Positions 137 to 14,948 of a stretch of DNA of 64,000 bases are shown here, piece after piece. Under the pieces are notes generated by a model that saw only the letters and a program-made list of their open reading frames with translations, made no database searches and was not told the DNA's origin. The translations under genes were made by a program, and so were the position numbers. How positions within the stretch are numbered: the first letter of the stretch is position 1; each line of letters begins with the position of its first letter. Where the stretch lies: the NCBI GenBank assembly GCA_949283025.1, contig CASDRB010000013.1, positions 1 through 64,000 of the forward strand, read 5' to 3'. Source of the stretch: an uncultured bacterium (lineage in GTDB: Bacteria; Bacillota_I; Bacilli_A; RFN20; CAG-826).

Positions 137-165
137 AAAATAGCGATTGATAATATCGCTATTTT
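137..165 (-). terminator. Terminator at end of capsule operon
   Basis: AAAATAGCGAT (137-147) pairs with the later arm ending ATCGCTATTTT around 155-165. Read on the minus strand the stem is followed by a T-rich tract. The hairpin overlaps the stop codon of the last capsule gene (164-166). Positions 59-136 between this and the preceding terminator hold no recognisable gene. Confidence 0.65.
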
Positions 166-781
166 ATCTTCCTTTAACTGCACCAAATATTTTAAGAATC
201 GTATATACAAATATTTTTATATCAAACCAAGCCGACATTCTTTTGACATATTCGTGGTCATATTTAGCTTTTTCGTACGGATCATGTTCTCTATTCATTC
301 TTGTTTGAGCATATCCGCTTAATCCGGGTTTAACATCGTATGCATTTGGAGAATATGCTTCTCTTGCTTTTACGAGTTCTTCTTCATTATGAGCCGCGCC
401 AGGTCTAGGACCAATAAAAGACATATCTCCTACAAATATGTTAAACAGCTGAGGAATCTCGTCTAGTGATGTCTTTCGCATAAATTGACCCCACCTATAT
501 TCCATCGCTTTTTGTTGTTCAATGGTCATATCGCTTGGAGCAATTTCTGGGGCATCAGCACGCATTGATCTAAATTTAAAAATTCTAAAAACTTTTTTAT
601 TTTTCCCAAGTCTTTCTTGCCTGAAAAAGATTGGTCCTTTAGATGTGCATTTTGTAATAATCGCACAAATTAACAAAACCGGAGAAAGCAAAATTATCCC
701 CACTAAAGATCCAACTAGATCTACAAGCCTTTTAAAGAATAAGTATACTCTTTGAGATTTTCTCAAAACACTATTAATCAT
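164..781 (-). CDS. Priming sugar phosphotransferase (bacterial sugar transferase family)
   Basis: This 205-residue protein belongs to the small monotopic phosphoglycosyl transferase family (PglC/WcaJ C-terminal domain type), which moves a sugar phosphate from a UDP-sugar to undecaprenyl phosphate to start a repeat unit at the inner membrane face. A hydrophobic membrane segment lies at about residues 14-40, followed by the family motifs KFRSMR (about 69-74), TSLDEIPQL (about 103-111), GPRPG and KPGLSGYAQ. The Asp-Glu of the DE(I/L)P motif is the expected catalytic pair. It is last in the capsule operon and overlaps the preceding glycosyltransferase by 8 bp. The sugar is not readable from sequence; N-acetylfucosamine would fit the neighbouring CapEFG genes, as in some related loci, but this is inference. 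Confidence 0.93.
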   Translation of the reverse strand: MINSVLRKSQRVYLFFKRLVDLVGSLVGIILLSPVLLICAIITKCTSKGPIFFRQERLGKNKKVFRIFKFRSMRADAPEIAPSDMTIEQQKAMEYRWGQFMRKTSLDEIPQLFNIFVGDMSFIGPRPGAAHNEEELVKAREAYSPNAYDVKPGLSGYAQTRMNREHDPYEKAKYDHEYVKRMSAWFDIKIFVYTILKIFGAVKGR

Positions 782-1886
782 TATTTGGCAATTTCCTCGC
801 TATAAATTTATAAATTAAATTATTAATTATGTCGGAACTATATTTTTCTTCAATTCTTTTCCGCGAGTTTAATGACATAGTTTCAACAATTTTAAAATCA
901 TTGAAACAATTTACATAAATCTTTGATAAGCCTTCAATATCATGCGCTTTCACTAAATACCCGGTTACTTCATTCACTACAATGTCTTTAATTCCAACAG
1001 AGTTGTAACCGATAATTGGTCTGCCCATAGACATAGCTTCCAAAATAGATCTCGGTAATCCTTCTCTATAATAAGACGGCAAGGTAACAAAAGTTGAATT
1101 TGATATAAATGGTTTTACATCTTTAACTTCTCCATAATACTCAATTATACCTTCATCAATAAATCGTTTTATATCGTTTAATGTCAATTGTAATTCGCCA
1201 CCAATTAATTTAAATTTTAAGTTAGGATTTTGTGCTTTTGCTAATTTAGCAGCATTACAAAAATCTAAAATTCCTTTATTTTTAATTAACCTAGAAATCA
1301 TTAAAATTGTTTGAGTGTCTTTTATTTTTTGATATGCAAATTCAGTTGTATCAATACCTATGCCATCAATAAGATATGAATTATGTGTGGTTGTTATGTT
1401 ATTTTTTAAGAAAATATTTTTATCGTCTTCATTTAAAAAGAAAACGCATTCAACTTTTTTAAGCGCTAGTCGATAAATAAAAATATAAAACAACATAAAG
1501 ATTTTTTCTTTTTTTGTTTGTGGTTGGAACGGATCCCCAAGTCCTTCAATCATTGAAAATATATGTTTAATTTTAGCTTTTTTTGCAGCCATTGCTCCCA
1601 AAATATTTGGTTTTGCTTGAAATGTAAAAACCATATCTGGCAGTAAAGTTTTTATAATATTATGAATTTGCTTCCTCGTCTTTAATGTTGAAAAAAATGA
1701 TTTTGATCTATTGTCAAATTCAACAACGAAAATCCCTACACCTAATTGTTTAATCTCTTCTATTCTTTCATCATCGGAAATAATTAATGATATTTTAATG
1801 TTTTTAGATAAAAGAAAAAGTATTAATTCTTTTCTAAAATTAATTACAGTACTACTTTTGCCACAAATAAATAGAATATGTTTCAC
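774..1886 (-). CDS. Glycosyltransferase family 4 (capsule repeat-unit assembly)
   Basis: This 370-residue protein has the GT-B fold layout of family GT4. The N-terminal half reads like the acceptor domain; the C-terminal half begins with TILMISRLIKNKG (about 194-206) and contains the nucleotide-sugar binding segment EGLPRSILEAMSMGRPII, with the paired glutamates of the EX7E motif. It starts with GTG, supported by a GGAG about 8 bases upstream, and lies one base from the end of CapG, so it is probably translationally coupled. It should add one sugar to the lipid-linked repeat unit in the cytoplasm. Donor and acceptor cannot be assigned. Confidence 0.9.
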   Translation of the reverse strand: MKHILFICGKSSTVINFRKELILFLLSKNIKISLIISDDERIEEIKQLGVGIFVVEFDNRSKSFFSTLKTRKQIHNIIKTLLPDMVFTFQAKPNILGAMAAKKAKIKHIFSMIEGLGDPFQPQTKKEKIFMLFYIFIYRLALKKVECVFFLNEDDKNIFLKNNITTTHNSYLIDGIGIDTTEFAYQKIKDTQTILMISRLIKNKGILDFCNAAKLAKAQNPNLKFKLIGGELQLTLNDIKRFIDEGIIEYYGEVKDVKPFISNSTFVTLPSYYREGLPRSILEAMSMGRPIIGYNSVGIKDIVVNEVTGYLVKAHDIEGLSKIYVNCFNDFKIVETMSLNSRKRIEEKYSSDIINNLIYKFIARKLPNND

Positions 1887-1887
1887 T

Positions 1888-3015
1888 TTATTTTCTCCAA
1901 ATTGTCTTATTTACAATGCCAGTATAACTTTGAATAATTTTCACAACTCTAATAGATGTATTAGTGTCTTCATAAGCTTCGGATTCTAACATTGGCTCAT
2001 TGTTATTAAACATACTTATTGCTAATTCAGTAGCCTTTAATACATCGTCTTTTTTAATTCCACCAACGATGATAGAACCAGCATCTAATCCTTCTGGCCT
2101 TTCTGTAGATGTTCTAATTAATACTGCTGGAAATTTCATAATCGCTGATTCTTCAGTTAATGTTCCAGAATCAGATAATACACACAATGCATTTTGTTGT
2201 AATTTTACATATTCAAAAAAACCAAATGGTTTCATATTTTTAACTAAAGGATGAAATTTAAATTTCCTTGCTTCAATAAATTTTCTGCTTCTTGGATGAG
2301 TAGAATAAATTACTGGAACTTGATATTTTTCAGCAATAGCGTTTATGCTATTCATCAATTCCATGAAATTTTCTTCGATATCAATATTTTCTTCTCTATG
2401 AGCTGATACAAGAATATATTTGTTTTTTTCTAATCCTAGTTTATTTAAAATGTCACTATTATTGATTTTATCAATATGTTTCATCAACACTTCTTTCATT
2501 GGTGAACCAGTTACAAATATTGTCTTGCCATCTATTCCTTCTTGTAATAAATATCTTCTGGCGTTTTCGGTATATGGAAGATTGATATCAGCAATATGAT
2601 CCACAATTGTTCTATTAGTCATCTCTGCCACATTCCAATCCCAACATCTATTACCTGCTTCCATATGGAAAATTGGTGTTTTTAAACGTTTAGCTGCAAT
2701 GGCAGAAAGCGCACTATTGGTGTCACCTAAAATTAAAACAGCATCAGGTTTATCTTTTAAAATTAAATCATATGCTTTAGCAATGACATTACCCATTGTT
2801 TCACCTAAATTTTTACCAGCGCAGTCTAAATAGTAATCAGGTGCTCTCAAACCTAATTCTTCAAAAAATATTTGATTTAATTCATAGTCATAGTTTTGTC
2901 CAGTATGTACCAATATATGATTAAAATATTTATCACAGGCTTTAATGGTTTCTGCTAGACGAATAATCTCTGGCCTAGTTCCTAAAATTGTCATTACTTT
3001 TAATTTATTTGCCAC
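1888..3015 (-). CDS. capG: UDP-sugar C2 epimerase, CapG/WecB type
   Basis: A 375-residue non-hydrolysing UDP-GlcNAc 2-epimerase family protein. Visible motifs are GTRPEIIRL (about 12-20), HTGQNYD, GDTNS, HMEAGNRCWDWNVAE, SDSGTLTEES and RTSTERPEGLDAG, all landmarks of the family. Because CapF and CapE lie just upstream, the likely reaction is the last step to UDP-N-acetyl-L-fucosamine (from UDP-N-acetyl-L-pneumosamine), as in the Staphylococcus aureus CapE-F-G and Pseudomonas WbjB-C-D sets, rather than making UDP-ManNAc. The start is a GTG preceded by GAGGTGG, overlapping the capF stop by 11 bp. Without the neighbours it would be called WecB; the paralogue assignment is inference. Confidence 0.9.
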   Translation of the reverse strand: MANKLKVMTILGTRPEIIRLAETIKACDKYFNHILVHTGQNYDYELNQIFFEELGLRAPDYYLDCAGKNLGETMGNVIAKAYDLILKDKPDAVLILGDTNSALSAIAAKRLKTPIFHMEAGNRCWDWNVAEMTNRTIVDHIADINLPYTENARRYLLQEGIDGKTIFVTGSPMKEVLMKHIDKINNSDILNKLGLEKNKYILVSAHREENIDIEENFMELMNSINAIAEKYQVPVIYSTHPRSRKFIEARKFKFHPLVKNMKPFGFFEYVKLQQNALCVLSDSGTLTEESAIMKFPAVLIRTSTERPEGLDAGSIIVGGIKKDDVLKATELAISMFNNNEPMLESEAYEDTNTSIRVVKIIQSYTGIVNKTIWRK

Positions 3016-4126
3016 TTATAACCACCTCTTCAAAATATGTATCGGGATTATTAGGATCAAAGGATTCAGATGCCCACATTATAGTAATTGAATCATCTTG
3101 ACCAATATTTGTAATTGAATGAGTATAACCAGTGGGAATGTCTACAACTTGTAGTTTGTCCCCACTTACAATATATTCTATCACATCTTCGCTGCCAATT
3201 TTTCTAAATTTTATTGAACAAGTACCTTTTACAACTAAAAATTTTTCATTTTTAGTGTGATGAAAATGATTTCCTTTGACTACTCCTGGTTTTCCAACAT
3301 TAACACTAACTTGCCCAGAATTTAAAGTTTTGATAAATTCAGTAAAAGAACCTCTATTATCAACATGCATATTCAAATCATAAATAAATTGATTTGTTGG
3401 TAGATATGATAAATAAGTCGCATATAATTTAGAAACGACTCCGTTATCCATGTTAGGAACGATTAAATTATCTCTAGATTCTTTAAATGATTTGATAATA
3501 TTGGCTAATTCACCAATAGATAATAAATAAGATGGTTTAATAGTTAATATTTTATTTGAACCTTTATAGTCTTCAGACTTAATTAAATCTAAAATAGTTT
3601 TACAAATATCATCGATGTAAACAAACTCTTTAACAATATCAGGGTCGTTTACACTAATATCTAATCCATTAGAGATGTTATAACAAAAAGTTGCCACAAC
3701 AGAGTTATAATTTGGTCGACACCACTTACCAAACACATTTTGGAAACGATAAATATAAACTGGATTGCCAGTTTTATTTTGATAATCAAACAAAAAATCT
3801 TCGCCCATTTTTTTAGATTTGCCATAATCATTATCGTATTCCGCTTGAGTTGATGATGATAATAAAATCGGAGTCTTCTTTTTGTTATTTTTTAATATAT
3901 CAACAAGCTTAACAATTGAATTTAAATTTCCATCATAAAACTCTTTAACATCCATGGGACGATTAATACCCGCTAAATGGACAATAAAATCTGCTTGCAA
4001 AGCATATTCATCCAATTTAGATAAATTATCTATATCAATTGCTAAAACGTCTATATCGCTTCTTTTAAGCCAAATGGATAAGTTTTTGCCAATAAATCCA
4101 TTGGCACCAGTCACCAATACTTTCAT
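3005..4126 (-). CDS. capF: CapF-like NAD-dependent reductase with C-terminal cupin
   Basis: A two-domain protein. The N-terminal SDR epimerase-like domain opens with VTGANGFIGKN and is followed at about residue 275 onwards by a cupin domain with the metal-ligand motif GNHFHHTKNEKFLVVKG. This fusion is the hallmark of CapF/WbjC, which reduces the 4-keto intermediate from CapE and epimerises at C3 on the way to UDP-N-acetyl-L-fucosamine. The ATG at 4126 is chosen because it starts right at the Rossmann strand; an in-frame TTG at 4153 and an ATG at 4132 also exist. The gene sits between licD and capG, while capE lies on the other side of licD. Confidence 0.92.
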   Translation of the reverse strand: MKVLVTGANGFIGKNLSIWLKRSDIDVLAIDIDNLSKLDEYALQADFIVHLAGINRPMDVKEFYDGNLNSIVKLVDILKNNKKKTPILLSSSTQAEYDNDYGKSKKMGEDFLFDYQNKTGNPVYIYRFQNVFGKWCRPNYNSVVATFCYNISNGLDISVNDPDIVKEFVYIDDICKTILDLIKSEDYKGSNKILTIKPSYLLSIGELANIIKSFKESRDNLIVPNMDNGVVSKLYATYLSYLPTNQFIYDLNMHVDNRGSFTEFIKTLNSGQVSVNVGKPGVVKGNHFHHTKNEKFLVVKGTCSIKFRKIGSEDVIEYIVSGDKLQVVDIPTGYTHSITNIGQDDSITIMWASESFDPNNPDTYFEEVVISGK

Positions 4127-4136
4127 AATCATAAAA

Positions 4137-5024
4137 TTATTCATATTTGCCAAAATCTAATTTGGCCATCACATGTCTTTCTCGTTTTTCAATAGGAGGT
4201 AATTCCATATAGTTTTCTCCATATCTCATCTTTGTTAACAATTTTCCGTTTTTAAAAGAATTTAATTTATGCCCTTCAAAATCATATTTATGATTTTCAA
4301 AAATAGTGTCATAAAAAATTTCTTCGCCTTTATTATGACCAACAACAAAATCAAAAGCATAATGTTTAGTATTTTTATATTTTTTATACAATTTTAATAA
4401 TTTATTTTTGTTGTAATTAACAAAAGGAGCAAACCAAAATCCTATAAATTTTCTAAATCTATAGTATGATTTGCCTTTACTTGTAGTTGGTAATAATTTT
4501 GGAGGGAATTTATATTCAAAGCCCAAAGCAACTATATGAATCAATGTAATCATCCTCTTGCCATGAATTTTACGCATTAAAGCATTATCAGATGTCTTAA
4601 TTATTGGAAAAATATCAATGAATATCCCTCTTTCAACAGGATATCCAGAAGCATTAAATTCAACGGCAGCCGTCCCCGAAAGCATTATTTTTAATCCAAA
4701 GAACGGATCATTATTATTGTTAGAAAGTATTCCACCAAAAAAATATTTATCTCCATAATCTTCTTTAACGGCATCAATGATTTTTTGAATATCATTTAAA
4801 TAAGCAACGCTATCAATGTCATCATCCCAAGGAATGAATCCTTTGTGCCGTATTGCTCCAAGCAATGTACCATAAAAAATATAAATTGGAATATTTCTTT
4901 TTTTACACGATTGTTCAACGTCTAAATAAATTTGAAGTTCAACTTTTTGCAATTTTTTTAATTTGTCATCTTTCAAAATATATTCTGGGAGTTCATTAGA
5001 ATTTATCATTTTGGTAATAGACAT
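4137..5024 (-). CDS. LicD-family phosphotransferase
   Basis: A 295-residue soluble protein with the LicD signature LLGAIRHKGFIPWDDDID (about 54-71), followed by further family segments such as ERGIFIDIFPI. LicD proteins are nucleotidyltransferase-fold enzymes that move phosphocholine or related phospho-groups from CDP-linked donors onto glycans. It has a good ribosome binding site (AAAGGAAA) and lies inside the UDP-FucNAc gene set, so it should modify the surface polysaccharide. No choline kinase or CDP-choline synthase is visible, but a CDP-glycerol synthase (TagD) lies in the same locus, so phosphoglycerol is a reasonable candidate substituent. That substrate call is inference. Confidence 0.88.
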   Translation of the reverse strand: MSITKMINSNELPEYILKDDKLKKLQKVELQIYLDVEQSCKKRNIPIYIFYGTLLGAIRHKGFIPWDDDIDSVAYLNDIQKIIDAVKEDYGDKYFFGGILSNNNNDPFFGLKIMLSGTAAVEFNASGYPVERGIFIDIFPIIKTSDNALMRKIHGKRMITLIHIVALGFEYKFPPKLLPTTSKGKSYYRFRKFIGFWFAPFVNYNKNKLLKLYKKYKNTKHYAFDFVVGHNKGEEIFYDTIFENHKYDFEGHKLNSFKNGKLLTKMRYGENYMELPPIEKRERHVMAKLDFGKYE

Positions 5025-5070
5025 ACTTTTTTCCTTTCATTCAAACAAAAATCAAACTTATTTGCTAAAT

Positions 5071-6087
5071 TTAATCATGCTGTTTGACTGGACCACCAAA
5101 CAATTCCAATTTCTTTAATAATTCTTTCATTCCTTCAACATCTAGACGTCCAGTATTATGGGAGGTATAAGATTCTCCTAAATCTAAATATTTATTACCT
5201 TTTTCAACATATTTATCATAATTAAGATCGCGATTATCAGCATATATTCTAAAGAAGTCGCCCATATCTTGCGCTCTTAACATTTCTTCTTGGGTAACTA
5301 ATGTTTCATATAGTTTTTCACCATGTCTAGTCCCGATATATTCAATTCCTGTTTTACTATTAGTTAATTCAATAACGGCTTTAGCTAAAGTATCAATTGT
5401 AGCCGCTGGAGCTTTTTGAACAAATAAATCACCTTGTTGGCCATGTTCAAAAGCATATAAGACTAAATCAACAGCATCATCTAATGTCATCATAAATCTA
5501 GTCATTTCAGGATTAGTAATGGTTATTGGTTTACCATGTTTAATTTGATCTAAAAACAATGGAATAACCGAGCCTCTAGAGGCCATAACATTGCCGTAGC
5601 GAGTTAAACATAATATAGTATCACCTTCTAAAAGCTGTCTAGATCTTGCCACTACATTTTTTTCCATCAATGCTTTGGTTATACCCATTGCATTGATTGG
5701 ATAAGCTGCTTTATCTGTAGATAAAAATATGGCTTTTTTAACTCCATTTTTAACACAAGCAGTTATAACATTATCTGAACCGATTACATTGGTTTTAACC
5801 GCTTCCATTGGATAGAATTCACAAGATGGGACTTGTTTTAAAGCTGCAGCACTAAAAACGTAGTCAACGCCCTTAAATGCATTTTCTATTGAATTGTAAT
5901 CTCTAACATCCCCAATATAAAATTTTAATTTGTCGTTATTATATGCCTTTCGCATATCGTCTTGCTTTTTCTCGTCTCTAGACAAAATTCTGATTTCTTT
6001 TATATCGGTATTTAAAAAACGATCCACTACCGCATGGCCAAACGAACCAGTGCCGCCAGTAATAAGTAATATTTTATTTTGAAACAT
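5071..6087 (-). CDS. capE: UDP-GlcNAc 4,6-dehydratase/5-epimerase (CapE/CapD-like)
   Basis: A 338-residue SDR protein of the polysaccharide biosynthesis CapD-like family. It opens with LLITGGTGSFGHAV (NAD-binding glycine motif), keeps DVRDY for the cofactor, and has STDKAAYPINAMGITKALME, in which Met stands where classical SDR enzymes have the catalytic Tyr; this MxxxK arrangement is typical of the inverting CapE/WbjB dehydratases. It converts UDP-GlcNAc to the 4-keto-6-deoxy sugar with C5 inversion, the first step to UDP-N-acetyl-L-fucosamine. It is in one operon with capF and capG, but licD lies between. Its length matches S. aureus CapE. Confidence 0.93.
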   Translation of the reverse strand: MFQNKILLITGGTGSFGHAVVDRFLNTDIKEIRILSRDEKKQDDMRKAYNNDKLKFYIGDVRDYNSIENAFKGVDYVFSAAALKQVPSCEFYPMEAVKTNVIGSDNVITACVKNGVKKAIFLSTDKAAYPINAMGITKALMEKNVVARSRQLLEGDTILCLTRYGNVMASRGSVIPLFLDQIKHGKPITITNPEMTRFMMTLDDAVDLVLYAFEHGQQGDLFVQKAPAATIDTLAKAVIELTNSKTGIEYIGTRHGEKLYETLVTQEEMLRAQDMGDFFRIYADNRDLNYDKYVEKGNKYLDLGESYTSHNTGRLDVEGMKELLKKLELFGGPVKQHD

Positions 6088-6100
6088 AAATTTATCTCCT

Positions 6101-7282
6101 CTAATTTTTATTATTATATAATAAGTAATAATTTTTAGCCATATTTTTGGAAGAGTATTTTTTTCTTGCTATTTTAGACATCTCGCATCTATCTAAATTC
6201 ATATATGTCTTGCTTTTTATAAAATCAATTAATAAATTCATTTCGTCATCACCAAAAAAAACAGAATATTGATTTATTCCGATTGACTCTGGCCCTCCAG
6301 ACTTAAAACCGGCAACAGGCGTTCCACAACATAAACTCTCTGCAGTTACTAATGAAAAAGTTTCGTTTCTACTTAACATAAGAGTTAAATCAGATGAACA
6401 ATAAAAATGTGAAAGAGATTGTTTATCTCTAACATTGAAGACACAATTAATATTTTTAGGAAAATGAACATTGCATTTTGGCCCTATATACATAATTTCA
6501 TAAGATTCATCAAATTCCAATAATTCGGCGATTTTAATTAACCTATCAATGCCTTTTGTATATATTAATGATGCCGATGTTACAAAAAGCAATTTTATTT
6601 TGTTATTTTTTGGATGAAACAGGTATTTAAATATATTGGTATCAATTCCATTAATAATAGTTTTACAATCGAATAGTTTGGTTATTCCTGATTTTTTATA
6701 GATATTTGTTGTATATTCAGAAACGCCAACAAAAGTAAAGTTACCATTTTGGAATGCTGCTTTCATTTTATGCCAATTATTTTTTGTATTATCAATTAGT
6801 ATTGATTTGCAAGCTTGTTTGGCTCCTAATGGGCATTTTGAACACCCATTAATGTATTTTATGCATTGCTTTTCTGGATATGCGCACGAACCAGTAGCAA
6901 AGAAAAAAGCATGCGCCGTCACTATTATAGGTATATTCATCTTTTTTAAAAATTTACAAAGTAAAAATATGTTAAAAGAATAAGCATTTATGCAGTGAAT
7001 ATGAATCATAGTTGGCGAAATTTTTTTAATTAATTTAATTAATCTAATGGTTGGCATAAACAAATGTCCATATCTATTTCCATCTATTCTTGTCAACAGC
7101 GCAGACAAATATCTAGAAACAACATTTCCACAATAAAAATAATTATCATTACGAACTTTTTTGCCATATGCATAAGCAATATATGATTCTATATTGTTTT
7201 GCAAAAGATATTTATGAATTTCTTCAACTAATGTTGCCGTGCTCCCTCCACATATTAATGAATTAACTTGCAAAACTTTCAT
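6101..7282 (-). CDS. Glycosyltransferase family 4 with Cys-rich segment
   Basis: A 393-residue GT4-type protein. The start MKVLQVNSLICGGSTATLVE is a typical GT-B first strand and donor loop, and the C-terminal half has TKGIDRLIKIAELL and the SLVTAESLCCGTPVAGFKSGGPE donor-binding segment. A segment around residues 125-165 contains HAFFFATGSCAYPEKQ and several cysteines (CxxxxxCxxxxxCxxC-like), a pattern seen in a WcaC-like subgroup of colanic acid-type transferases and possibly a metal site. The gene overlaps the upstream glycosyltransferase by 20 bp, so the two are coupled. The sugar transferred is unknown. Confidence 0.9.
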   Translation of the reverse strand: MKVLQVNSLICGGSTATLVEEIHKYLLQNNIESYIAYAYGKKVRNDNYFYCGNVVSRYLSALLTRIDGNRYGHLFMPTIRLIKLIKKISPTMIHIHCINAYSFNIFLLCKFLKKMNIPIIVTAHAFFFATGSCAYPEKQCIKYINGCSKCPLGAKQACKSILIDNTKNNWHKMKAAFQNGNFTFVGVSEYTTNIYKKSGITKLFDCKTIINGIDTNIFKYLFHPKNNKIKLLFVTSASLIYTKGIDRLIKIAELLEFDESYEIMYIGPKCNVHFPKNINCVFNVRDKQSLSHFYCSSDLTLMLSRNETFSLVTAESLCCGTPVAGFKSGGPESIGINQYSVFFGDDEMNLLIDFIKSKTYMNLDRCEMSKIARKKYSSKNMAKNYYLLYNNKN

Positions 7283-8384
7283 GAATTATTTCTCCTATAT
7301 CTTTTTTAAATTCTTCATCTAATTTTAAAATTAATTTTCGATAATCATAATTTAATTTAATGTCCTTGATTTTTGTTATGCAATCAGCAAAATCAGAATA
7401 GAAAACAACAAATTCATTTAACTTAGAATCGTAAACTGACGGGCTATTCGAGCACAAAACCGCCAGTCCGCAACCAAAATATGTCAATATTTTTGATGGA
7501 AATGAACTAAGATTAAATTGTTTTTCTGGGTCTTGAGAATTTATACCTATATCACATTGAGATAAAAAATTAATAAAATCATCACCAGAAAGAAACCCAT
7601 CAAACTTTATTTCGCATAAAAAAGAATGAGAAGCAAAATATTTTTTTAAATAATTATCATCACCGAATCCTAAAATATGCACAACATACTTATCTGTCAG
7701 AAGTTGAGCAATTTTTAAAACATTTATTGCCCCGCCTTTATTTTTATCAAAGGTTCCTGAATAAACAATATGAATTTTATGATCAATTGTCGAAAACTTA
7801 TTAGATGTATGGTTGTAACACAAATATTCCCCGTACAAAATCGGGCTGTTGTTTTCTTTTCCAAAAATTTTTTTTCTTAATACATCAGATGCAAAAATGT
7901 GTTTGTCACATATTTTTATAAGTTCTATTTCTTTTCTTTTTTTGAAGTTTGATTTATTACCAACATCACAATATAATTCTTCCACTTGCAAAATAATTTT
8001 ATTCTTTGTTTTGCTTTTTATGTATTTATAAACAGGGCAAAAAATAAGAGAGTGGTAAAAAATAATCAAATCTCCTGGCCTAATATAAGATTTTACAAAT
8101 TTTTTTGCTTGTGTTTGCAAAATTATGTTTTGGAATAAGCGCCTAAAAATTTTTCCGAATGAAAAACTTTTTAACACAAATGTATTAATATTATTTAATA
8201 TTGATGTCTTATTAAATTTTGAAAAATGAAATGGTTTTTTTTCAGGAGCACAATTAACTGCAATTACATTATAATTTAAACTAGAAAGCGTTCTCAAAAC
8301 ATATCTACATAATTGATTAGAGGCCGGAGAAAACGATCTAGTTTTGTCTTCACTAGAAAAAAAGCCAAAATAGTAAATTTTCAT
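7263..8384 (-). CDS. Glycosyltransferase (GT4-like)
   Basis: A 373-residue protein with GT-B organisation. An N-terminal acceptor domain starts MKIYYFGFFSSEDKTRS; the C-terminal donor domain begins about residue 207 with IHIVYSGTFDKNKGGAINVL and contains the segment DIGINSQDPEKQFNLSSFPSK followed by a KILTYFGCGLAVL stretch, the usual place of the donor-contacting glutamate region. The classical EX7E is weak here, so the family call is less firm than for its neighbours. It lies between the Wzy-Wzx fusion (1-base gap) and another glycosyltransferase (20 bp overlap). Confidence 0.8.
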   Translation of the reverse strand: MKIYYFGFFSSEDKTRSFSPASNQLCRYVLRTLSSLNYNVIAVNCAPEKKPFHFSKFNKTSILNNINTFVLKSFSFGKIFRRLFQNIILQTQAKKFVKSYIRPGDLIIFYHSLIFCPVYKYIKSKTKNKIILQVEELYCDVGNKSNFKKRKEIELIKICDKHIFASDVLRKKIFGKENNSPILYGEYLCYNHTSNKFSTIDHKIHIVYSGTFDKNKGGAINVLKIAQLLTDKYVVHILGFGDDNYLKKYFASHSFLCEIKFDGFLSGDDFINFLSQCDIGINSQDPEKQFNLSSFPSKILTYFGCGLAVLCSNSPSVYDSKLNEFVVFYSDFADCITKIKDIKLNYDYRKLILKLDEEFKKDIGEIIHESFAS

Positions 8385-8385
8385 T

Positions 8386-11022
8386 TTATTTAATTTTCCT
8401 CCTCAAAAATCTGTTATTCGTAATTGGCAACACTATTGCAACTGGCAGCAATGCTATAGCAGAAGTAAACCTTACTATATACCAATATTCTTTACCAATA
8501 TCAATATTAAATAGTAATACTATAGATGCAATTTTAATCAAAACGCCAATTAAATATGCATACATCTGCGGTTTTAAATTGCCTATTCCATTTGATATCG
8601 CCGATGACAAATACGCAATAATTAAAATTGCATCATGAATAAAAAACACAATAGAAGCAACCCAATTAACTGAAATAGCATTTTCTCCTAACCATATTTT
8701 AAAAATAATTGGTAAGCAAAGCATTATTAATAAATCGACCGTTATTAAACAAACATCAAATTTGAAAATTATGGAATTTACTTTTTTTATCCAATTTATA
8801 TCTTTAGATGAAGATGCTTTAGCAATTATTGACCACAAAGGGCCAGAAAGCAAGGTTGCAAAAGTTATAACAATAGTAAATATTTTATTGTAATATGTAT
8901 ACGAGTTCACAGATGTTGGTCCAAAAAGTTGAGTTAATATTATTTCATTAGACGAATTAATAAAAAGCAAACATATTTGAATTATGAAAAATATTCCGCC
9001 TAACATAGCAACTTCTTTGCTAGAAGAAACAGAAAAATTTTTAAAAGATATATCTATTTTTTTTAGTTTTGTTAAAAAGGCAACAATCGTTGCTATAATA
9101 AGTGGCAAATTGTTTGCTATCAAATAAACCAATGCTAAAGCCAACAATTTATCATAAAGTTGTTCGGTATTAAAAATAATAACAAAGAAAAAAAGAAACA
9201 AATTTGTGAATAAGGAAAACGAGTTAGTAACTGCTTGAATTTGGAAGCTCTCGTAAATGTTTCCAATTAATTTAAGTATAAAATTCAAACATATAGAAAC
9301 AAAAATAATTATTACAACATTTCTAAGTTGCACAGAAGTGATAATTGTAGTTGAAATATTAAAAATTTTATTAAAATCTAATATAAAAGCCGCTATTAAA
9401 CCAATAATAAAAATAATTAACACCAAAAAAAAGGTGGAAACATAAGCCGAAACAATATATGAACTTGCTCTCTTATTATCTTTTTTTGCAAAAGCGTCAA
9501 TTAATTTATTTTTCAATCCATTTCCTATACCTAAATCAAATGTCAAAATCCACGAAATTAGTGATAAAATTGTAAACCAAACACCTAAAACTAGTTCGTT
9601 GTCAAAATATTTAATATAAGCAGGCGTTGTAAAAAGCCCTAAAAATAAAGCAAATCCTTTTATTAAATATGTGCCAAAAGAGTTTTGAATAAACTGTTTT
9701 GTTTTTTCGTTAGAATTAAATTTTAAATATATATTAGAATACCCATATTCATTTATGATTGCATCTCTCTTGCTCTTAAATAAATTTTCTAATAAGCAAA
9801 ACACAACAAAATATAAACATGCATTGTTTTGCAATGGTTCAACGCTCAAAAATGTTATGAATAAAATACATAATATTATTTTTTGGAAAATAGTTTCTTT
9901 TTTTATTGCAAAAATTCCGACAAACGGAATTACGATTATAGGCAATCCAAAAATGCCATAAGTGGAAAGCCAATATCCAAATGTGGAAACTTGCGCATCA
10001 ATATCAAAATTCATAGAAGCCACATATTCAAAAAATATATCGCTTTCATTAATTTGCCCCACCCCAAATGGGTGATCAAAAAATATCTTCAAATTTACAA
10101 AAGGACCGAACAATCTACTTTGTAATGATACATTAAAATCGAAAAATTTATGTATTACATTAGGGTATGCAACAAAAATAGCAAATGGCAAAAGTAGTGG
10201 CATCAAAAACAGTAGTGTTTTAATTAGCTTTCCTTTATGACTTGAAAGTTTTGAAGCAAGATATATAAGAATCACAAAAAGACAAAGATATGCTGAAGCA
10301 GAAAATGTTGTAACAATTGATATTAAATAAATAACTATCTTAATATAATTTGGCTTCCCATTCAAAAACTCTAGAACAATTGCAAATACTAAAAATATAC
10401 CAAAAAGTGCAGGTTCCCAAAAAATACCACAATTTCTATTAAATACTGATTGGAGTTGGAAAATAATAAAAAAGAAATTGTTATAAGTGCCATAATTTGA
10501 TGTTACTGAATAAAAATTTGGAGAAAAATTGAAAAACAAAGACGGTAGAAATATTGTTAAAGAAAACAAACAAATCATTGGGAAAATATTCATGAATATT
10601 TTCAATAATCGTTTAGCTGAAAAACACTTGTATGATAAAAATGCAAATAATATAAGGCATAATGTGCTGGTTATTGAATTAAAAGCATTTTGAGTCAAAC
10701 TTATGTTAATTGCAAAAACCACAATAACAGACAAAGAAAACAAAATTAAAAAAAAATTAGAAATGTCAGAAAAAATTACAAACAAGGTTTTTTTAATTGA
10801 ATATGATGCATTTTTTTTATTGAAAATTTCAATATTAAAAAATAGAAAATATTTTATAAGCAAAATGCCTGTTATGATTATTAACCATATGTTGAAAAAA
10901 TATCTGTACGCTTCTAAATTAAAAAGAGGGTACCCGCTCATAAAAATAAATGTCAGAAATGTCAAAAACAATATTGACACATCCAAAATTTTTGTAATAT
11001 TAATTTTATTTTTTTTAAACAT
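8386..11022 (-). CDS. Wzy-like polymerase fused to Wzx-like flippase
   Basis: An 878-residue, almost entirely hydrophobic protein. Residues 1 to about 420 resemble the Wzy/WaaL O-antigen polymerase-ligase class: many membrane spans, NCGIFWEPALFGIFL around 197-211, and DHPFGVGQI around 316-324 before a large exterior loop. From about residue 440 a second unit starts, EKTKQFIQNSFGTYLIKG, followed by TTPAYIKYFDNELVLG and then about a dozen spans, the typical opening and length of a Wzx oligosaccharide flippase (MATE-like superfamily). The two are normally separate genes; here the frame is open throughout with no internal start near the junction (about 9700-9780). The predicted role is flipping of the lipid-linked repeat unit and its polymerisation outside. 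Overlaps the upstream gene by 8 bp. Confidence 0.85.
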   Translation of the reverse strand: MFKKNKINITKILDVSILFLTFLTFIFMSGYPLFNLEAYRYFFNIWLIIITGILLIKYFLFFNIEIFNKKNASYSIKKTLFVIFSDISNFFLILFSLSVIVVFAINISLTQNAFNSITSTLCLILFAFLSYKCFSAKRLLKIFMNIFPMICLFSLTIFLPSLFFNFSPNFYSVTSNYGTYNNFFFIIFQLQSVFNRNCGIFWEPALFGIFLVFAIVLEFLNGKPNYIKIVIYLISIVTTFSASAYLCLFVILIYLASKLSSHKGKLIKTLLFLMPLLLPFAIFVAYPNVIHKFFDFNVSLQSRLFGPFVNLKIFFDHPFGVGQINESDIFFEYVASMNFDIDAQVSTFGYWLSTYGIFGLPIIVIPFVGIFAIKKETIFQKIILCILFITFLSVEPLQNNACLYFVVFCLLENLFKSKRDAIINEYGYSNIYLKFNSNEKTKQFIQNSFGTYLIKGFALFLGLFTTPAYIKYFDNELVLGVWFTILSLISWILTFDLGIGNGLKNKLIDAFAKKDNKRASSYIVSAYVSTFFLVLIIFIIGLIAAFILDFNKIFNISTTIITSVQLRNVVIIIFVSICLNFILKLIGNIYESFQIQAVTNSFSLFTNLFLFFFVIIFNTEQLYDKLLALALVYLIANNLPLIIATIVAFLTKLKKIDISFKNFSVSSSKEVAMLGGIFFIIQICLLFINSSNEIILTQLFGPTSVNSYTYYNKIFTIVITFATLLSGPLWSIIAKASSSKDINWIKKVNSIIFKFDVCLITVDLLIMLCLPIIFKIWLGENAISVNWVASIVFFIHDAILIIAYLSSAISNGIGNLKPQMYAYLIGVLIKIASIVLLFNIDIGKEYWYIVRFTSAIALLPVAIVLPITNNRFLRRKIK

Positions 11023-12112
11023 TTATTTTCTCCATTTTAATATTGAAAAAAATATAATAATTAAAAAATAAAATAGCAACTACAGACACCAAATAAATAA
11101 AAAATAGCCAACCAATAGATGATAAATTCCCTAAACAAAAAAGATACACCAATATAAATCCTAATGTAGAACACAAAACACATTTTAAATTTGAATTATA
11201 AAAATCGTTGGTATTATATAGAATTTTTTTTCTGTTTTTAAAATTATAAAACAAAAATAAAAAAACACATAATGATAAAATTATTGGCGAAAAAGATACC
11301 CTATATAAAAATAACTTGTCCCTAAATTTTAAAGAATCTAAAAACCTATCATTAATTTCTGAAAAATTATCATATAAAATAATATCTTCTGCTATATTAT
11401 TGTTTTTAAATAAAGAGAGAAAATTTGTATAATTCAATTTATTAATATTTAAAGACATTGAGACTTGGCTGTAGTTGAGTGGAGTATCACAATTAATAAA
11501 AATCGCATCTCCAAATGTCTTTTTATAAATTTCATATCTATTAGTTGAAAAAACAAATTCTGATGAAAATATTCCAGCAATATTTAAAACAATTTCACTT
11601 CCATCATTATAAATTATTATTTTTTTATCAACACAATCATTATAATTTGTTCCGTATAATGCTTCATATATTGATTGAGGAACCGCGCAATAATATGGAT
11701 AATTAATTAATGATGCATCTCCATACTGCAAATATATTCTTTGGGCTAGTTCATTTTTAATAAATTCTTCATCGCCCTCAAATTTTAATGGCCAAGTTTC
11801 TATAATAGCAATTTGTTGTTTTCCTTCATCGTTTAAAAAACCTGTCGCTGATTTGAATATCAATGCTTTATTATCATTTATGTGCTTTTCGCTTGCCAAC
11901 AAATAATCATATCTATCTAATGGAAATGAGCACAAAAATAAATTCTTTATTTCATCTGAAGAAACTGAATATTTTAAAGAATTGCTAAAAATATAAGCAT
12001 CAGTAATAGTAAAAGCCTCAATAAATAGTGTAATAGAAGAAAAAAACAAAAAGAAAACAAGCGTCGTAACAATAAAATTAGTAATTTTGAACAAATTATT
12101 TTGTTTTAACAT
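11015..12112 (-). CDS. FtsX/MacB-topology membrane protein, no partner ATPase
   Basis: A 365-residue membrane protein with one span at about residues 10-32, a large extracytoplasmic domain to about 265, then three spans at about 270-290, 307-327 and 333-357. This 1+3 layout, and the segment AVPQSIYEALYGTNYNDCVD followed by IIYNDGSEIVLNIAGIF (about 143-181), resemble the periplasmic core domain of MacB/FtsX-type permeases. No ABC ATPase lies in the polysaccharide locus. It overlaps both neighbours (8 and 17 bp), so it is a committed member of the operon. It may be an export, signalling or assembly factor for the polysaccharide; I do not recognise a named family. Confidence 0.7.
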   Translation of the reverse strand: MLKQNNLFKITNFIVTTLVFFLFFSSITLFIEAFTITDAYIFSNSLKYSVSSDEIKNLFLCSFPLDRYDYLLASEKHINDNKALIFKSATGFLNDEGKQQIAIIETWPLKFEGDEEFIKNELAQRIYLQYGDASLINYPYYCAVPQSIYEALYGTNYNDCVDKKIIIYNDGSEIVLNIAGIFSSEFVFSTNRYEIYKKTFGDAIFINCDTPLNYSQVSMSLNINKLNYTNFLSLFKNNNIAEDIILYDNFSEINDRFLDSLKFRDKLFLYRVSFSPIILSLCVFLFLFYNFKNRKKILYNTNDFYNSNLKCVLCSTLGFILVYLFCLGNLSSIGWLFFIYLVSVVAILFFNYYIFFNIKMEKINV

Positions 12113-13265
12113 CCTTCAAAAATCCTTCCATTGTTTCCTTCCAACTGCTTATTTCTAAATTCTTATTTTTGGCGCAAAATTCATGCATTGCTTTTTTTTC
12201 TTCTTTACTTAACGATGCAGCATTTCTAAGCATATCGCCTAAATCAGAATCATTGTAACCAATTTTAGAAATTGAATTGTTTCCATTTAAATAATATTTT
12301 AAATCGCTTGTCAAATTCGTTATTACTGGAGTGCCACATGCTAATGACTCAGCAATTTTCGATGGAAACCCAGATTGTGTTGATATAGTATTGCTTCTAA
12401 ATAAAATAGTAAAGTCGCTCCTAACTATTCTTTTTAAGCATTCATCGTATGGCTGTTTGCCTAAAAATACAACTGTATTATTCGTAATAATATCGCGCTT
12501 CACAATCTTGCAGTAATTAAGAAATGTTTCTTTTTCGATTCCCATTACTATAAGTTCTTTTTTTTCTACATTTAACTTCAAAAATTCTGATACGATAATA
12601 TCTAATTTATCTTTGCTGAAAAGATATCCAGGATCTCCACAATAACAAATCGACAACCTGTCTGTTGGGTGATATTTTACATTTGTGAGAAAAGAAAATT
12701 TATATGATTTTGAATTATATATACATGGTATTATAATTTTTTTTCTATCTTTTACTAAATTAGCTAAAAAAGACGATATGCACATAAAATCCATGTTTCT
12801 ATATGCCAACTTATTAAAAAAAACGTTATTTAACTTATATAAGATTTTTTTAAAAAATCCTCCTGATGTTGTTGACAGCATATCACCATTATCATAAATT
12901 AGGCCAATATTATTATTAGAACAAAATTTAATCAAATACTTTAAATTTACAAACCCTACACTAGTCACAAAAATATAAGTTATTTTTTCATTAATATTAG
13001 TTGTTTTTTTTAAAATCGCCTTAATATTCCTACTAGTAGAAAATAAATTTATGTAATCAATGGTTTTTTGTGGATATTTGCCATTACTAAAATAAAATCC
13101 ATCTATGTATCCTTCGCCCATATTACTTTTAGATAAACCATATGCTTTTACATTATATCCCAAATCAGATAGCAAAGAGCAAATAGCCGAAACTCTAGAT
13201 GCACTAGCGTTATTATAAGGTAAGTCCATTTTTCCAAAATATAAAATTGTAGGAACATTATGCAT
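12096..13265 (-). CDS. Glycosyltransferase family 4
   Basis: A 389-residue GT-B protein and first gene of the minus-strand capsule operon. It starts MHNVPTILYFGKMDLPYNNA; the donor domain carries LSICYCGDPGYLFSKDKLD and the segment GFPSKIAESLACGTPVITNL (about 303-322), with a glutamate in the position expected to contact the donor sugar. It should act on the cytoplasmic face during repeat-unit assembly. No convincing Shine-Dalgarno sequence precedes the ATG at 13265. The gene is divergent from the UDP-glucose dehydrogenase gene, and the 57 bp between them must hold both promoters. Donor and linkage are unknown. Confidence 0.88.
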   Translation of the reverse strand: MHNVPTILYFGKMDLPYNNASASRVSAICSLLSDLGYNVKAYGLSKSNMGEGYIDGFYFSNGKYPQKTIDYINLFSTSRNIKAILKKTTNINEKITYIFVTSVGFVNLKYLIKFCSNNNIGLIYDNGDMLSTTSGGFFKKILYKLNNVFFNKLAYRNMDFMCISSFLANLVKDRKKIIIPCIYNSKSYKFSFLTNVKYHPTDRLSICYCGDPGYLFSKDKLDIIVSEFLKLNVEKKELIVMGIEKETFLNYCKIVKRDIITNNTVVFLGKQPYDECLKRIVRSDFTILFRSNTISTQSGFPSKIAESLACGTPVITNLTSDLKYYLNGNNSISKIGYNDSDLGDMLRNAASLSKEEKKAMHEFCAKNKNLEISSWKETMEGFLKDVKTK

Positions 13266-13340
13266 AAAGTAAATATAATATATTATTTTTAAAAAATCTA
13301 TATATTAAATGCCAAATTATATATGTTAAAATACATAATT

Positions 13341-14516
13341 ATGATAAAAACGTTTGAAATTATTGGTTTAGGATACGTAGGGTTCTCTAACGCGGCATTA
13401 TTAGGAAACCAAAATACTGTTATTGCATATGATATTTCACAAGAAGTATTAGATATCAAGAAGAAACAAGCAGAAACAATTGGTGGAAAATTAAATATCA
13501 AGTTTGTTAATAATTTAGAAAAGTCTATTCAAGATGCAGATATTATTATTATTGCTACCCCCACTAATTTTGATGAAACTTCTAATATGTTTGATACAAC
13601 TAGTGTTGAATCATCAATAAAAACAATAATAAATCGCAAAAAGAGAGAACCCATCATACTAATTAAATCGACTGTTCCGGTTGGATTTACGCAGGAAATG
13701 ATAGAAAAATATAATTATGAACACATATATTTTATGCCTGAATTTTTAAAAGAAGGTAATGCTCTTTATGATATTGCCCACCCTTCAAGAATTATTGTTG
13801 GTGTTCCAAAATTGAATGATTATCATATCAAGTCTGCATCAAATATAATCAATATGTATTTAAAATCAATTAATAAAAAAGATGTGGAAACACTTATAGT
13901 AAGAAGCCAAGAAGCAGAAGCAATAAAATTGTTTTCTAATTCATATTTGGCTATGCGGATAGCATTTTTTAATGAATTAGATTCATATGCAGAAGAAAAT
14001 AATTTATCAACAAGCGAAATTATAAAAGGAATTTGTAGTGATCCAAGAATAGGAGATTTTTATAATAATCCATCTTTTGGGTATGGTGGATATTGTCTTC
14101 CTAAAGATTCAAAGCAATTAAAATCTTCATTTGGAAATATTCCTAATAACTTAATTGGAGCCATTGTAGATTCAAATGTCACCAGAAAGAAATTTATTTT
14201 TGAAAAAATAAAAGAAAAAATAAGCAATCAAGCAAACCCAATCATAGGTATATACCGTCTAACAATGAAAAAAGATTCGGATAATTTCAGACAAAGTTCA
14301 ATAATTGATGTACTTAATTATTTAATTGAAGATGGTTTTAAAGTTATTATTTATGAACCATTGATAACTTGCAAAGAATATAACCATATAAAAGTTATAA
14401 ATGATCTAGGCACATTCAAAAAAGAAACAACATTAATAATTGCTAATAGAATAGACGATAATTTAACAGATGTTTTAAACAAAGTTTACACTAGAGATTT
14501 GTTCAAAAGGGATTAA
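13341..14516 (+). CDS. ugd: UDP-glucose 6-dehydrogenase
   Basis: A 391-residue nucleotide-sugar dehydrogenase that oxidises UDP-glucose to UDP-glucuronate with two NAD. It shows EIIGLGYVGFSNAALLG (NAD site), STVPVGFT, PEFLKEGNALYD, and GYGGYCLPKDSKQL, which carries the catalytic cysteine and the conserved Lys-Asp. The length and the MPEFLKEG form fit the short Bacillota/Proteobacteria Ugd type. The ATG at 13341 is preferred because it begins at the Rossmann strand; an in-frame ATG at 13323 would add six residues. It is divergent from the capsule operon and likely supplies GlcA to it; a GDP-mannose or UDP-hexosamine substrate is less likely but not excluded. Confidence 0.92.
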   Translation: MIKTFEIIGLGYVGFSNAALLGNQNTVIAYDISQEVLDIKKKQAETIGGKLNIKFVNNLEKSIQDADIIIIATPTNFDETSNMFDTTSVESSIKTIINRKKREPIILIKSTVPVGFTQEMIEKYNYEHIYFMPEFLKEGNALYDIAHPSRIIVGVPKLNDYHIKSASNIINMYLKSINKKDVETLIVRSQEAEAIKLFSNSYLAMRIAFFNELDSYAEENNLSTSEIIKGICSDPRIGDFYNNPSFGYGGYCLPKDSKQLKSSFGNIPNNLIGAIVDSNVTRKKFIFEKIKEKISNQANPIIGIYRLTMKKDSDNFRQSSIIDVLNYLIEDGFKVIIYEPLITCKEYNHIKVINDLGTFKKETTLIIANRIDDNLTDVLNKVYTRDLFKRD

Positions 14517-14534: not shown

Positions 14535-14927
14535 TTAATTCTTACCTAAAGATGTTTTTATTTGAGTCGTTGATATTTCTGGTGTTCTCGGCAAATAGAT
14601 GACCTCGCACCCTTCTTTTTTTAAAAAATCGAATTTGCCTTCCCAATCATTACCTATGACAAATGTATCAACATGATATTCGTGTATATCATTAACTTTT
14701 TGTTCCCAATTTTCTTCAGGTATAACAAGATCAACATATCTAATCGCTTCTAATAAAGCCTTTCTTTTGTCGTATGAAAAATAAGATTTTTTACCTTTCA
14801 GAGCATTAAATTCATCTGTTGATAACGCCACTATAAGATAATCGCCTAATGCTTTTGCTCTTTTTAATAAATTTATATGTCCATAGTGCAATAAATCAAA
14901 CGTTCCATAAGTTATAACTCGTTTCAT
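14535..14927 (-). CDS. tagD: Glycerol-3-phosphate cytidylyltransferase
   Basis: A 130-residue cytidylyltransferase making CDP-glycerol from CTP and glycerol 3-phosphate. It has the GTFDLLHYGHINLL motif with the HxGH pair (about 9-22), a DYLIVALSTDEFN strand, and the C-terminal PEISTTQIK signature (RTxGISTT class). Length and motifs match Bacillus TagD. The start at 14927 has GAGG seven bases upstream; the frame runs further to a TTG at 14948, which is not preferred. It converges on ugd with 18 bp between. CDP-glycerol normally feeds teichoic acid synthesis; here no TagF-like polymerase is present, and the LicD protein in the same locus is the visible candidate user. Confidence 0.92.
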   Translation of the reverse strand: MKRVITYGTFDLLHYGHINLLKRAKALGDYLIVALSTDEFNALKGKKSYFSYDKRKALLEAIRYVDLVIPEENWEQKVNDIHEYHVDTFVIGNDWEGKFDFLKKEGCEVIYLPRTPEISTTQIKTSLGKN

Positions 14928-14948
14928 AATTTTCCTCACGCTAACCAA

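What the first reader, a model, noticed from the sequence alone, without database searches (positions are those of the whole stretch)
8386..11022. Natural Wzy-Wzx fusion in one 878-residue protein
The sequence shows one uninterrupted frame. Its first about 420 residues resemble an O-antigen polymerase (EPALFG and HPFGVG motifs); from about residue 440 it opens with the start of a typical flippase (KTKQFIQNSFGTYLIKG). Flipping and polymerisation are established as separate proteins in the Wzx/Wzy pathway. A covalent link would hold exported repeat units next to the polymerase. I do not know of a described fusion.
Basis: partly seen in the sequence, partly recalled or inferred. Interest (0 to 1): 0.75.

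Follow-up and report, generated by a model that had tools for sequence, protein, structure and literature searches.

The report
Natural flippase-polymerase fusion with membrane partner
In a family of uncultured Bacilli, the protein that joins surface-sugar units into chains and the protein that carries those units across the membrane are one continuous protein, found in 9 genera (and in reverse order in a tenth) and always next to an unstudied membrane protein, which makes the long-suspected physical coupling of the two steps directly testable.

Summary
Window 8386-11022 (minus strand) is one open frame of 878 aa: a Wzy-type polymerase (12 TM), a short cytoplasmic linker (about 419-444) and a Wzx/MOP flippase (12 TM). 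It is no artefact: the fusion, at about 30% identity, occurs in 15 genomes of 9 genera of one GTDB family of Bacilli, and its flippase halves form one fully supported clade. The nearest relatives outside the family are separate, adjacent wzy and wzx genes. Two further genomes carry the reverse order with a different flippase, a second fusion event. All 17 fusion genes, and nothing else found in 224 genomes of the family, lie next to one uncharacterised 4-TM protein (window 11015-12112). Its weakly predicted fold resembles LolC/MacB/BceB permeases, with no ABC ATPase gene found in the cluster; in six genomes it is fused to a glycosyltransferase. The usual chain-length regulator Wzz was not found in this genome or most of the others. 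Best reading: a covalently coupled flippase-polymerase with a dedicated polymerase partner. Activity, coupling and partner function are inferred, not shown. The papers I could search describe no such natural fusion. New variant of a known pathway.

The parts
9733..11022 (-). Polymerase (Wzy) half, residues 1-430: 12 predicted TM helices, N and C ends in the cytoplasm
   Evidence: Pfam Wzy_C sub-threshold in window, above threshold in homologues; AF2 helices; loop charge pattern
10435..10437 (-). R196, nearly invariant, third extracytoplasmic loop, just before FWEP (residues 201-204, 10411-10422)
   Evidence: alignment A5, topology
10114..10116 (-). R303, invariant, fifth extracytoplasmic loop, followed by invariant G320 (R-X16-G)
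   Evidence: alignment A5, topology
9691..9768 (-). Cytoplasmic linker, residues 419-444; lowest model confidence at 425-437
   Evidence: AF2, charges, no internal start codon
8389..9708 (-). Flippase (Wzx/MOP) half, residues 439-878, 12 predicted TM helices
   Evidence: Polysacc_synt, Foldseek hits MATE, WzxE, MurJ, tree
11015..12112 (-). Companion gene, 365 aa: TM1, one extracytoplasmic alpha/beta domain, three TM; overlaps the fusion gene by 8 bases
   Evidence: weak LolC/MacB/BceB fold
12096..13265 (-). Glycosyltransferase (GT4-like) overlapping the companion by 17 bases; in six related genomes a GT domain is fused to the companion
7263..8384 (-). Glycosyltransferase directly downstream of the fusion
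6101..7282 (-). Glycosyltransferase
1888..6087 (-). Sugar-nucleotide and decoration genes: WecB/CapG-type epimerase (1888-3015), WbjC/CapF-type reductase (3005-4153), LicD-family transferase (4137-5024), FnlA/CapE-type dehydratase (5071-6087); suggests UDP-L-FucNAc
   Evidence: FnlA and WbjC models matched below their equivalog cut-offs, WecB above
774..1886 (-). Glycosyltransferase
   Evidence: Glycos_transf_1 1.3e-24
164..781 (-). Initiating undecaprenyl-phosphate sugar-phosphate transferase
   Evidence: Bac_transf 3.5e-59
13323..14516 (+). UDP-glucose 6-dehydrogenase-like; next to it a glycerol-3-phosphate cytidylyltransferase (14535-14948, minus)

Best explanation
The gene encodes a natural Wzy-Wzx fusion: one 24-TM protein whose N-terminal half polymerises and whose C-terminal half flips undecaprenyl-diphosphate-linked repeat units, joined by a short cytoplasmic linker. 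The repeat unit is built on the inner leaflet by the initiating transferase and glycosyltransferases of the cluster, flipped by the C-half, and passed to the tethered N-half, which adds it to the chain outside. The adjacent 4-TM companion with an extracytoplasmic LolC/MacB-like domain most likely works with the polymerase, perhaps in place of Wzz. Shown by computation: one frame, the two families, the fold of the flippase half, topology, conservation, single origin of the forward fusion as judged from the flippase tree, the constant companion. Inferred: activity of both halves, substrate hand-over, companion function.
For: One frame and no internal start in the linker. Family matches of both halves. 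Full-chain AF2 with pLDDT 85.5 and pTM 0.80, only residues 425-437 below 50 as a segment; C-half hits WzxE and MurJ. Positive-inside pattern: 31 K/R in inside loops against 8 outside, linker inside. R196 and R303 fall in loops 3 and 5, where the functional RXnG arginines of Shigella Wzy lie (PMC12004945). 15 genomes in 9 genera hold the fusion, none outside the family in 279 genomes of the order. Outside, the same wzy and wzx are adjacent separate genes, the pattern expected of a fusion of interacting partners. Fused flippase halves form one clade, SH-aLRT 100; the same subgroups recur in both halves. A separate reverse-order fusion exists. Companion in exactly the 17 fusion genomes of 224, adjacent each time.
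Against: No experiment. The window's own sequence scores below the Pfam cut-off in both halves. Foldseek gave no listed hit for the polymerase half. Relative placement of the two halves in the model cannot be judged without PAE. Wzy_C also contains ligases. The companion model is poor (pLDDT 52.7), so its fold is tentative. In small genomes, fusion could be a neutral accident that then spread.
Confidence: 0.72

Rival explanations
1. The chain is a real fusion gene, but the product is cut in the linker, or the halves act independently; the covalent link has no role and is a neutral result of losing the stop between two tightly packed genes in a small genome.
For: Unfused relatives are already nearly overlapping (gap 3 bases in L036, overlap 4 in L050). 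The linker is the least ordered stretch and is not conserved in sequence.
Against: The fusion has persisted at about 30% identity across 9 genera with no re-splitting seen in its clade, and a second fusion of the same two functions arose in the other order with another flippase.
Confidence: 0.2
2. The N-half is a polymer ligase or oligosaccharyltransferase (WaaL/PglL-like, same Pfam family) rather than a polymerase, so the protein couples flipping to transfer onto an acceptor.
For: Wzy_C (Pfam description 'O-Antigen ligase') holds both functions; the own genome has a second, 695-aa Wzy_C protein elsewhere (L149).
Against: PF04932 finds no other match on the window's contig; unfused relatives sit as wzy-wzx pairs; arginines in loops 3 and 5 as in Wzy.
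Confidence: 0.1
3. Assembly or sequencing artefact that joins two genes.
For: Draft genome, AT-rich with homopolymer runs.
Against: Thirteen genome assemblies of this family, this one included, carry the fusion as one complete in-frame ORF.
Confidence: 0.01
4. The companion is an ordinary ABC-type permease or other neighbour without any functional link to the fusion.
For: Fold hits are ABC permeases.
Against: 17 of 17 co-occurrence, adjacent each time; no ABC ATPase by motif in 14 of 16 related loci or in the polysaccharide cluster of the window (the motif hit in L117/L118 lies about 6 kb or more away and was not classified); a paralogue overlaps a Wzy-GT fusion in G237.
Confidence: 0.1

Closest known systems
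Wzx/Wzy-dependent polysaccharide pathway (O-antigen, capsule, EPS)
   Same: Initiating sugar-phosphate transferase, glycosyltransferases, MOP flippase and Wzy_C polymerase in one cluster
   Different: Flippase and polymerase are one protein; no Wzz found; constant LolC/MacB-like companion
Separate adjacent wzy-wzx pairs of Paenibacillus, Chengkuizengella, Balneolaceae, Arenibacter
   Same: Nearest relatives of both halves, same gene order
   Different: Two genes; no companion detected
Wzx-Wzy reverse fusion in G047/G067 (same family)
   Same: Same pair of functions in one ORF, same companion family
   Different: Order reversed, flippase from another MOP lineage (Polysacc_synt E 8.6e-21)
Wzz/CpsC polysaccharide co-polymerases (PF02706)
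   Same: Membrane partner of the polymerase with an extracytoplasmic domain (proposed)
   Different: The companion has four TM and no Pfam match to Wzz
Type VII ABC permeases (LolC/LolE, MacB, BceB, FtsX)
   Same: TM1, extracytoplasmic core domain, three TM; best Foldseek hits of the companion
   Different: No ATPase partner found; often fused to a glycosyltransferase; sequence match below threshold

Membership tests
Wzy polymerase | Match to Wzy_C (PF04932) | tested here: inconclusive
   Window 21.4-23.9 bits, below the cut-off of 31.7; eight forward-fused homologues above it
Wzy polymerase | 10-14 TM with two large extracytoplasmic loops carrying essential arginines | tested here: met
   12 TM, R196 in loop 3 and R303-X16-G in loop 5; that they are essential is not tested
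Wzy polymerase | Polymerises lipid-linked repeat units | not testable with these tools
   needs assay
Wzx / MOP flippase | Match to Polysacc_synt (PF01943) | tested here: inconclusive
   Window 25.8-27.3 bits, just below 28.2; four forward-fused homologues above
Wzx / MOP flippase | 12-TM MOP fold | tested here: met
   Foldseek MATE, WzxE, MurJ, probability 1.0, TMt up to 0.73
Wzx / MOP flippase | Flips lipid-linked repeat units | not testable with these tools
   needs assay
Wzx/Wzy-dependent pathway | Initiating transferase and GTs in the cluster | tested here: met
Wzx/Wzy-dependent pathway | Wzz/PCP chain-length regulator | tested here: not met
   No PF02706 match in the window's genome; above cut-off in 2 of 15 fusion genomes tested, on other contigs. 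Not all Wzx/Wzy systems need one, so this is not a strict criterion
Type VII ABC permease (companion) | TM1, core domain, TM2-4 | tested here: inconclusive
   Topology fits; Foldseek top 20 are all this class but model pLDDT is 52.7; MacB_PCD E 0.029 in 1 of 10; hhalign probability 43
Type VII ABC permease (companion) | Cognate ABC ATPase | tested here: not met
   None by motif in 14 of 16 related loci or the window cluster; an ATPase encoded elsewhere is not excluded

The most novel reading that the evidence does not exclude
A Wzz-independent polysaccharide assembly machine: flippase and polymerase in one chain, with an ATPase-less LolC/MacB-fold protein, itself sometimes fused to a glycosyltransferase, acting as co-polymerase and physically linking repeat-unit synthesis, flipping and polymerisation.
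Probability: 0.3. Interest if true: 0.82.

Novelty: new variant of a known kind. Interest (0 to 1): 0.62.

Why it matters
A physical Wzx-Wzy complex has long been proposed, but the reviews read here cite only genetic evidence for Wzx and direct evidence for Wzy-Wzz (PMC5748678, PMC4863624). A conserved natural fusion, with a second in the reverse order, is strong evolutionary evidence that the two act together, and gives a single chain with fixed 1:1 stoichiometry for structural and biochemical work. The companion is a candidate for a new class of polymerase partner where Wzz is missing.

Tried and rejected
First genome-contig scan with the single protein found nothing; the alignment was needed. 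Sequence search of solved structures found no relative for either half or for the companion, so fold search was used. The viral fold library gave nothing significant. No fusion in plasmids. Among the roughly 155 best Polysacc_synt matches listed for 392 genomes of the phylum, no open frame exceeded 580 aa, so fusions of this flippase family are rare; weaker matches were not listed. I first took the fusion to be the genome's only flippase and polymerase; rejected, because contig C10 has a typical 500-aa flippase and a 695-aa Wzy_C protein. The MacB_PCD model does not find the companion in these genomes. The organism name of the window's own genome is unknown; relatives are MAGs titled Bacilli, Bacillales or Erysipelotrichaceae.

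Full report
Observation. The ORF at 8386-11022, minus strand, is real: 878 codons from ATG to stop. Pfam finds Wzy_C in the N-half and Polysacc_synt in the C-half when the two are scanned apart, both below the curated cut-off for this sequence but above it in several fused homologues. No NCBIfam or Pfam family spans both halves.

Is it an artefact? No. tblastn in 144 related genomes found full-length fused relatives at about 30% identity in other genera. A profile search of 224 genomes of the same GTDB family found 15 genomes in 9 genera with the forward fusion; HMMs of the two halves, run on the ORFs, confirm that both lie in one open frame. Thirteen are complete; one (G058) is split over two contigs and one (G231) starts at a contig end. 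Between residues 407 and 470 of the window protein there is no start codon, so separate translation of the flippase is unlikely here.

Origin. A scan of 84,980 species genomes with the alignment, followed by ORF analysis, shows that the closest relatives outside the family (Paenibacillus, Chengkuizengella, Balneolaceae, Arenibacter, Belliella, a Lachnospiraceae MAG) have wzy and wzx as separate neighbours in the same order, with gaps of 3-96 bases or overlaps. Order-wide (279 genomes) no fusion appears outside the family; class-wide (395 genomes) relatives outside the family are separate genes. In a maximum-likelihood tree of the flippase halves all 14 fused rows form one clade (SH-aLRT 100) near those pairs. 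The polymerase tree is less resolved, and a single fused clade is not rejected (p-AU 0.53-0.55); subgroups such as L034/L039/L113, L040/L041, L045/L059 and L114/L115 recur in both trees, so the halves have travelled together.

A second fusion. G047 and G067 carry a 949-aa ORF with the flippase first and the polymerase second. Its polymerase half is related to ours; its flippase half is a different MOP lineage with a clear Polysacc_synt match (8.6e-21).

Structure and topology. AlphaFold2 on the 878-aa chain with 44 sequences gave pLDDT 85.5 and pTM 0.80; only the linker core (425-437) is a segment below 50. Foldseek matches the C-half to MATE, WzxE and MurJ structures; no match to the N-half was listed. 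Taking TM helices from the model, cytoplasmic loops hold 31 K/R and outside loops 8, which places N-terminus, linker and C-terminus in the cytoplasm. The invariant R303 and nearly invariant R196 then lie in extracytoplasmic loops 5 and 3, the same loops as the functional RXnG arginines of Wzy of S. flexneri (PMC12004945).

The companion. Each of the 17 fusion genes, in either order, has next to it a gene for a 4-TM protein with one large extracytoplasmic domain. Searching the family with its profile returned exactly these 17 genomes of 224; because the profile was built from these members, more distant companions may be missed. It was not found beside unfused polymerase genes of the family (G028, G183) or in the outside loci. 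In six genomes the companion ORF continues into a glycosyltransferase domain (five of these ORFs scanned by Pfam); in the window a separate glycosyltransferase gene overlaps the companion. Its model is weak, yet the first 20 Foldseek hits are all LolC/LolE, MacB, BceB or YbbP, and a short profile match to FtsX-type permeases covers the core-domain signature. No ABC ATPase was found by a motif scan in the window cluster or in 14 of 16 related loci; the hit in L117/L118 was not classified. In G237 a paralogue (E 8.8e-7) overlaps a Wzy_C-glycosyltransferase fusion. Since the companion stays while the flippase changes (reverse fusion) or is replaced by a glycosyltransferase (G237), it seems to follow the polymerase. 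Wzz was not found in the window's genome and passed the cut-off in only 2 of 15 fusion genomes tested. I therefore propose, as inference, that it is a polymerase partner that may stand in for Wzz.

The cluster. Initiating transferase, four glycosyltransferases, FnlA/CapE-, WbjC/CapF- and WecB/CapG-like enzymes, a LicD-family transferase, a UDP-glucose dehydrogenase and a glycerol-3-phosphate cytidylyltransferase suggest a surface polysaccharide with L-FucNAc and perhaps a phosphodiester decoration. The structure is not known.

Literature. A Wzx-Wzy-PCP complex has been proposed for long; cited evidence for Wzx is genetic, and Wzy-Wzz is the pair shown physically. Phrase searches for a Wzx-Wzy or flippase-polymerase fusion found no paper in 5.39 million open papers. 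Subscription journals, preprints and protein databases were not covered, so prior unremarked database entries are likely.

Verdict. A real, conserved and twice-evolved fusion of flippase and polymerase, with a new constant neighbour. What is shown is sequence, fold of the flippase half, topology, phylogeny and co-occurrence. Function of either half, hand-over and companion role remain to be tested.

Noticed in passing
L153:3585-7152 (+) (G237): A companion paralogue (426 aa) overlapping by 17 bases a 767-aa fusion of Wzy_C polymerase and GT4 glycosyltransferase: another natural polymerase fusion with the same partner type.
   Followed up: partly
L149:3714-5801 (+) (own genome) and L154, L155, L157, L158, L159, L161: A 620-705 aa, 14-18 TM Wzy_C protein in a housekeeping context (often beside an smpB-like or a SIR2-like gene, by eye) recurs across the family; possible ligase or polymerase of an unknown envelope polymer.
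   Followed up: no
L150:4566-7463, L162:4641-7535, L151:4600-7521, L152:4492-7413: 964-973 aa proteins with a Wzy_C membrane part and a C-terminal soluble domain of about 380 aa without a Pfam match, two kinds in genus g18.
   Followed up: no
L039:10303-12579, L034, L040, L044, L045, L059: The companion is fused at its C-terminus to a glycosyltransferase domain.
   Followed up: partly
L148:1410-2912 (-) (own genome, contig C10): A second, typical Wzx-like flippase (500 aa) beside a glycosyltransferase gene.
   Followed up: partly
L033:9595-11295 and L035:10381-12081: In genus g25 the fusion is followed by a 566-aa protein with TM segments and, by eye, repeats that look like Ig-like surface domains.
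   Followed up: no
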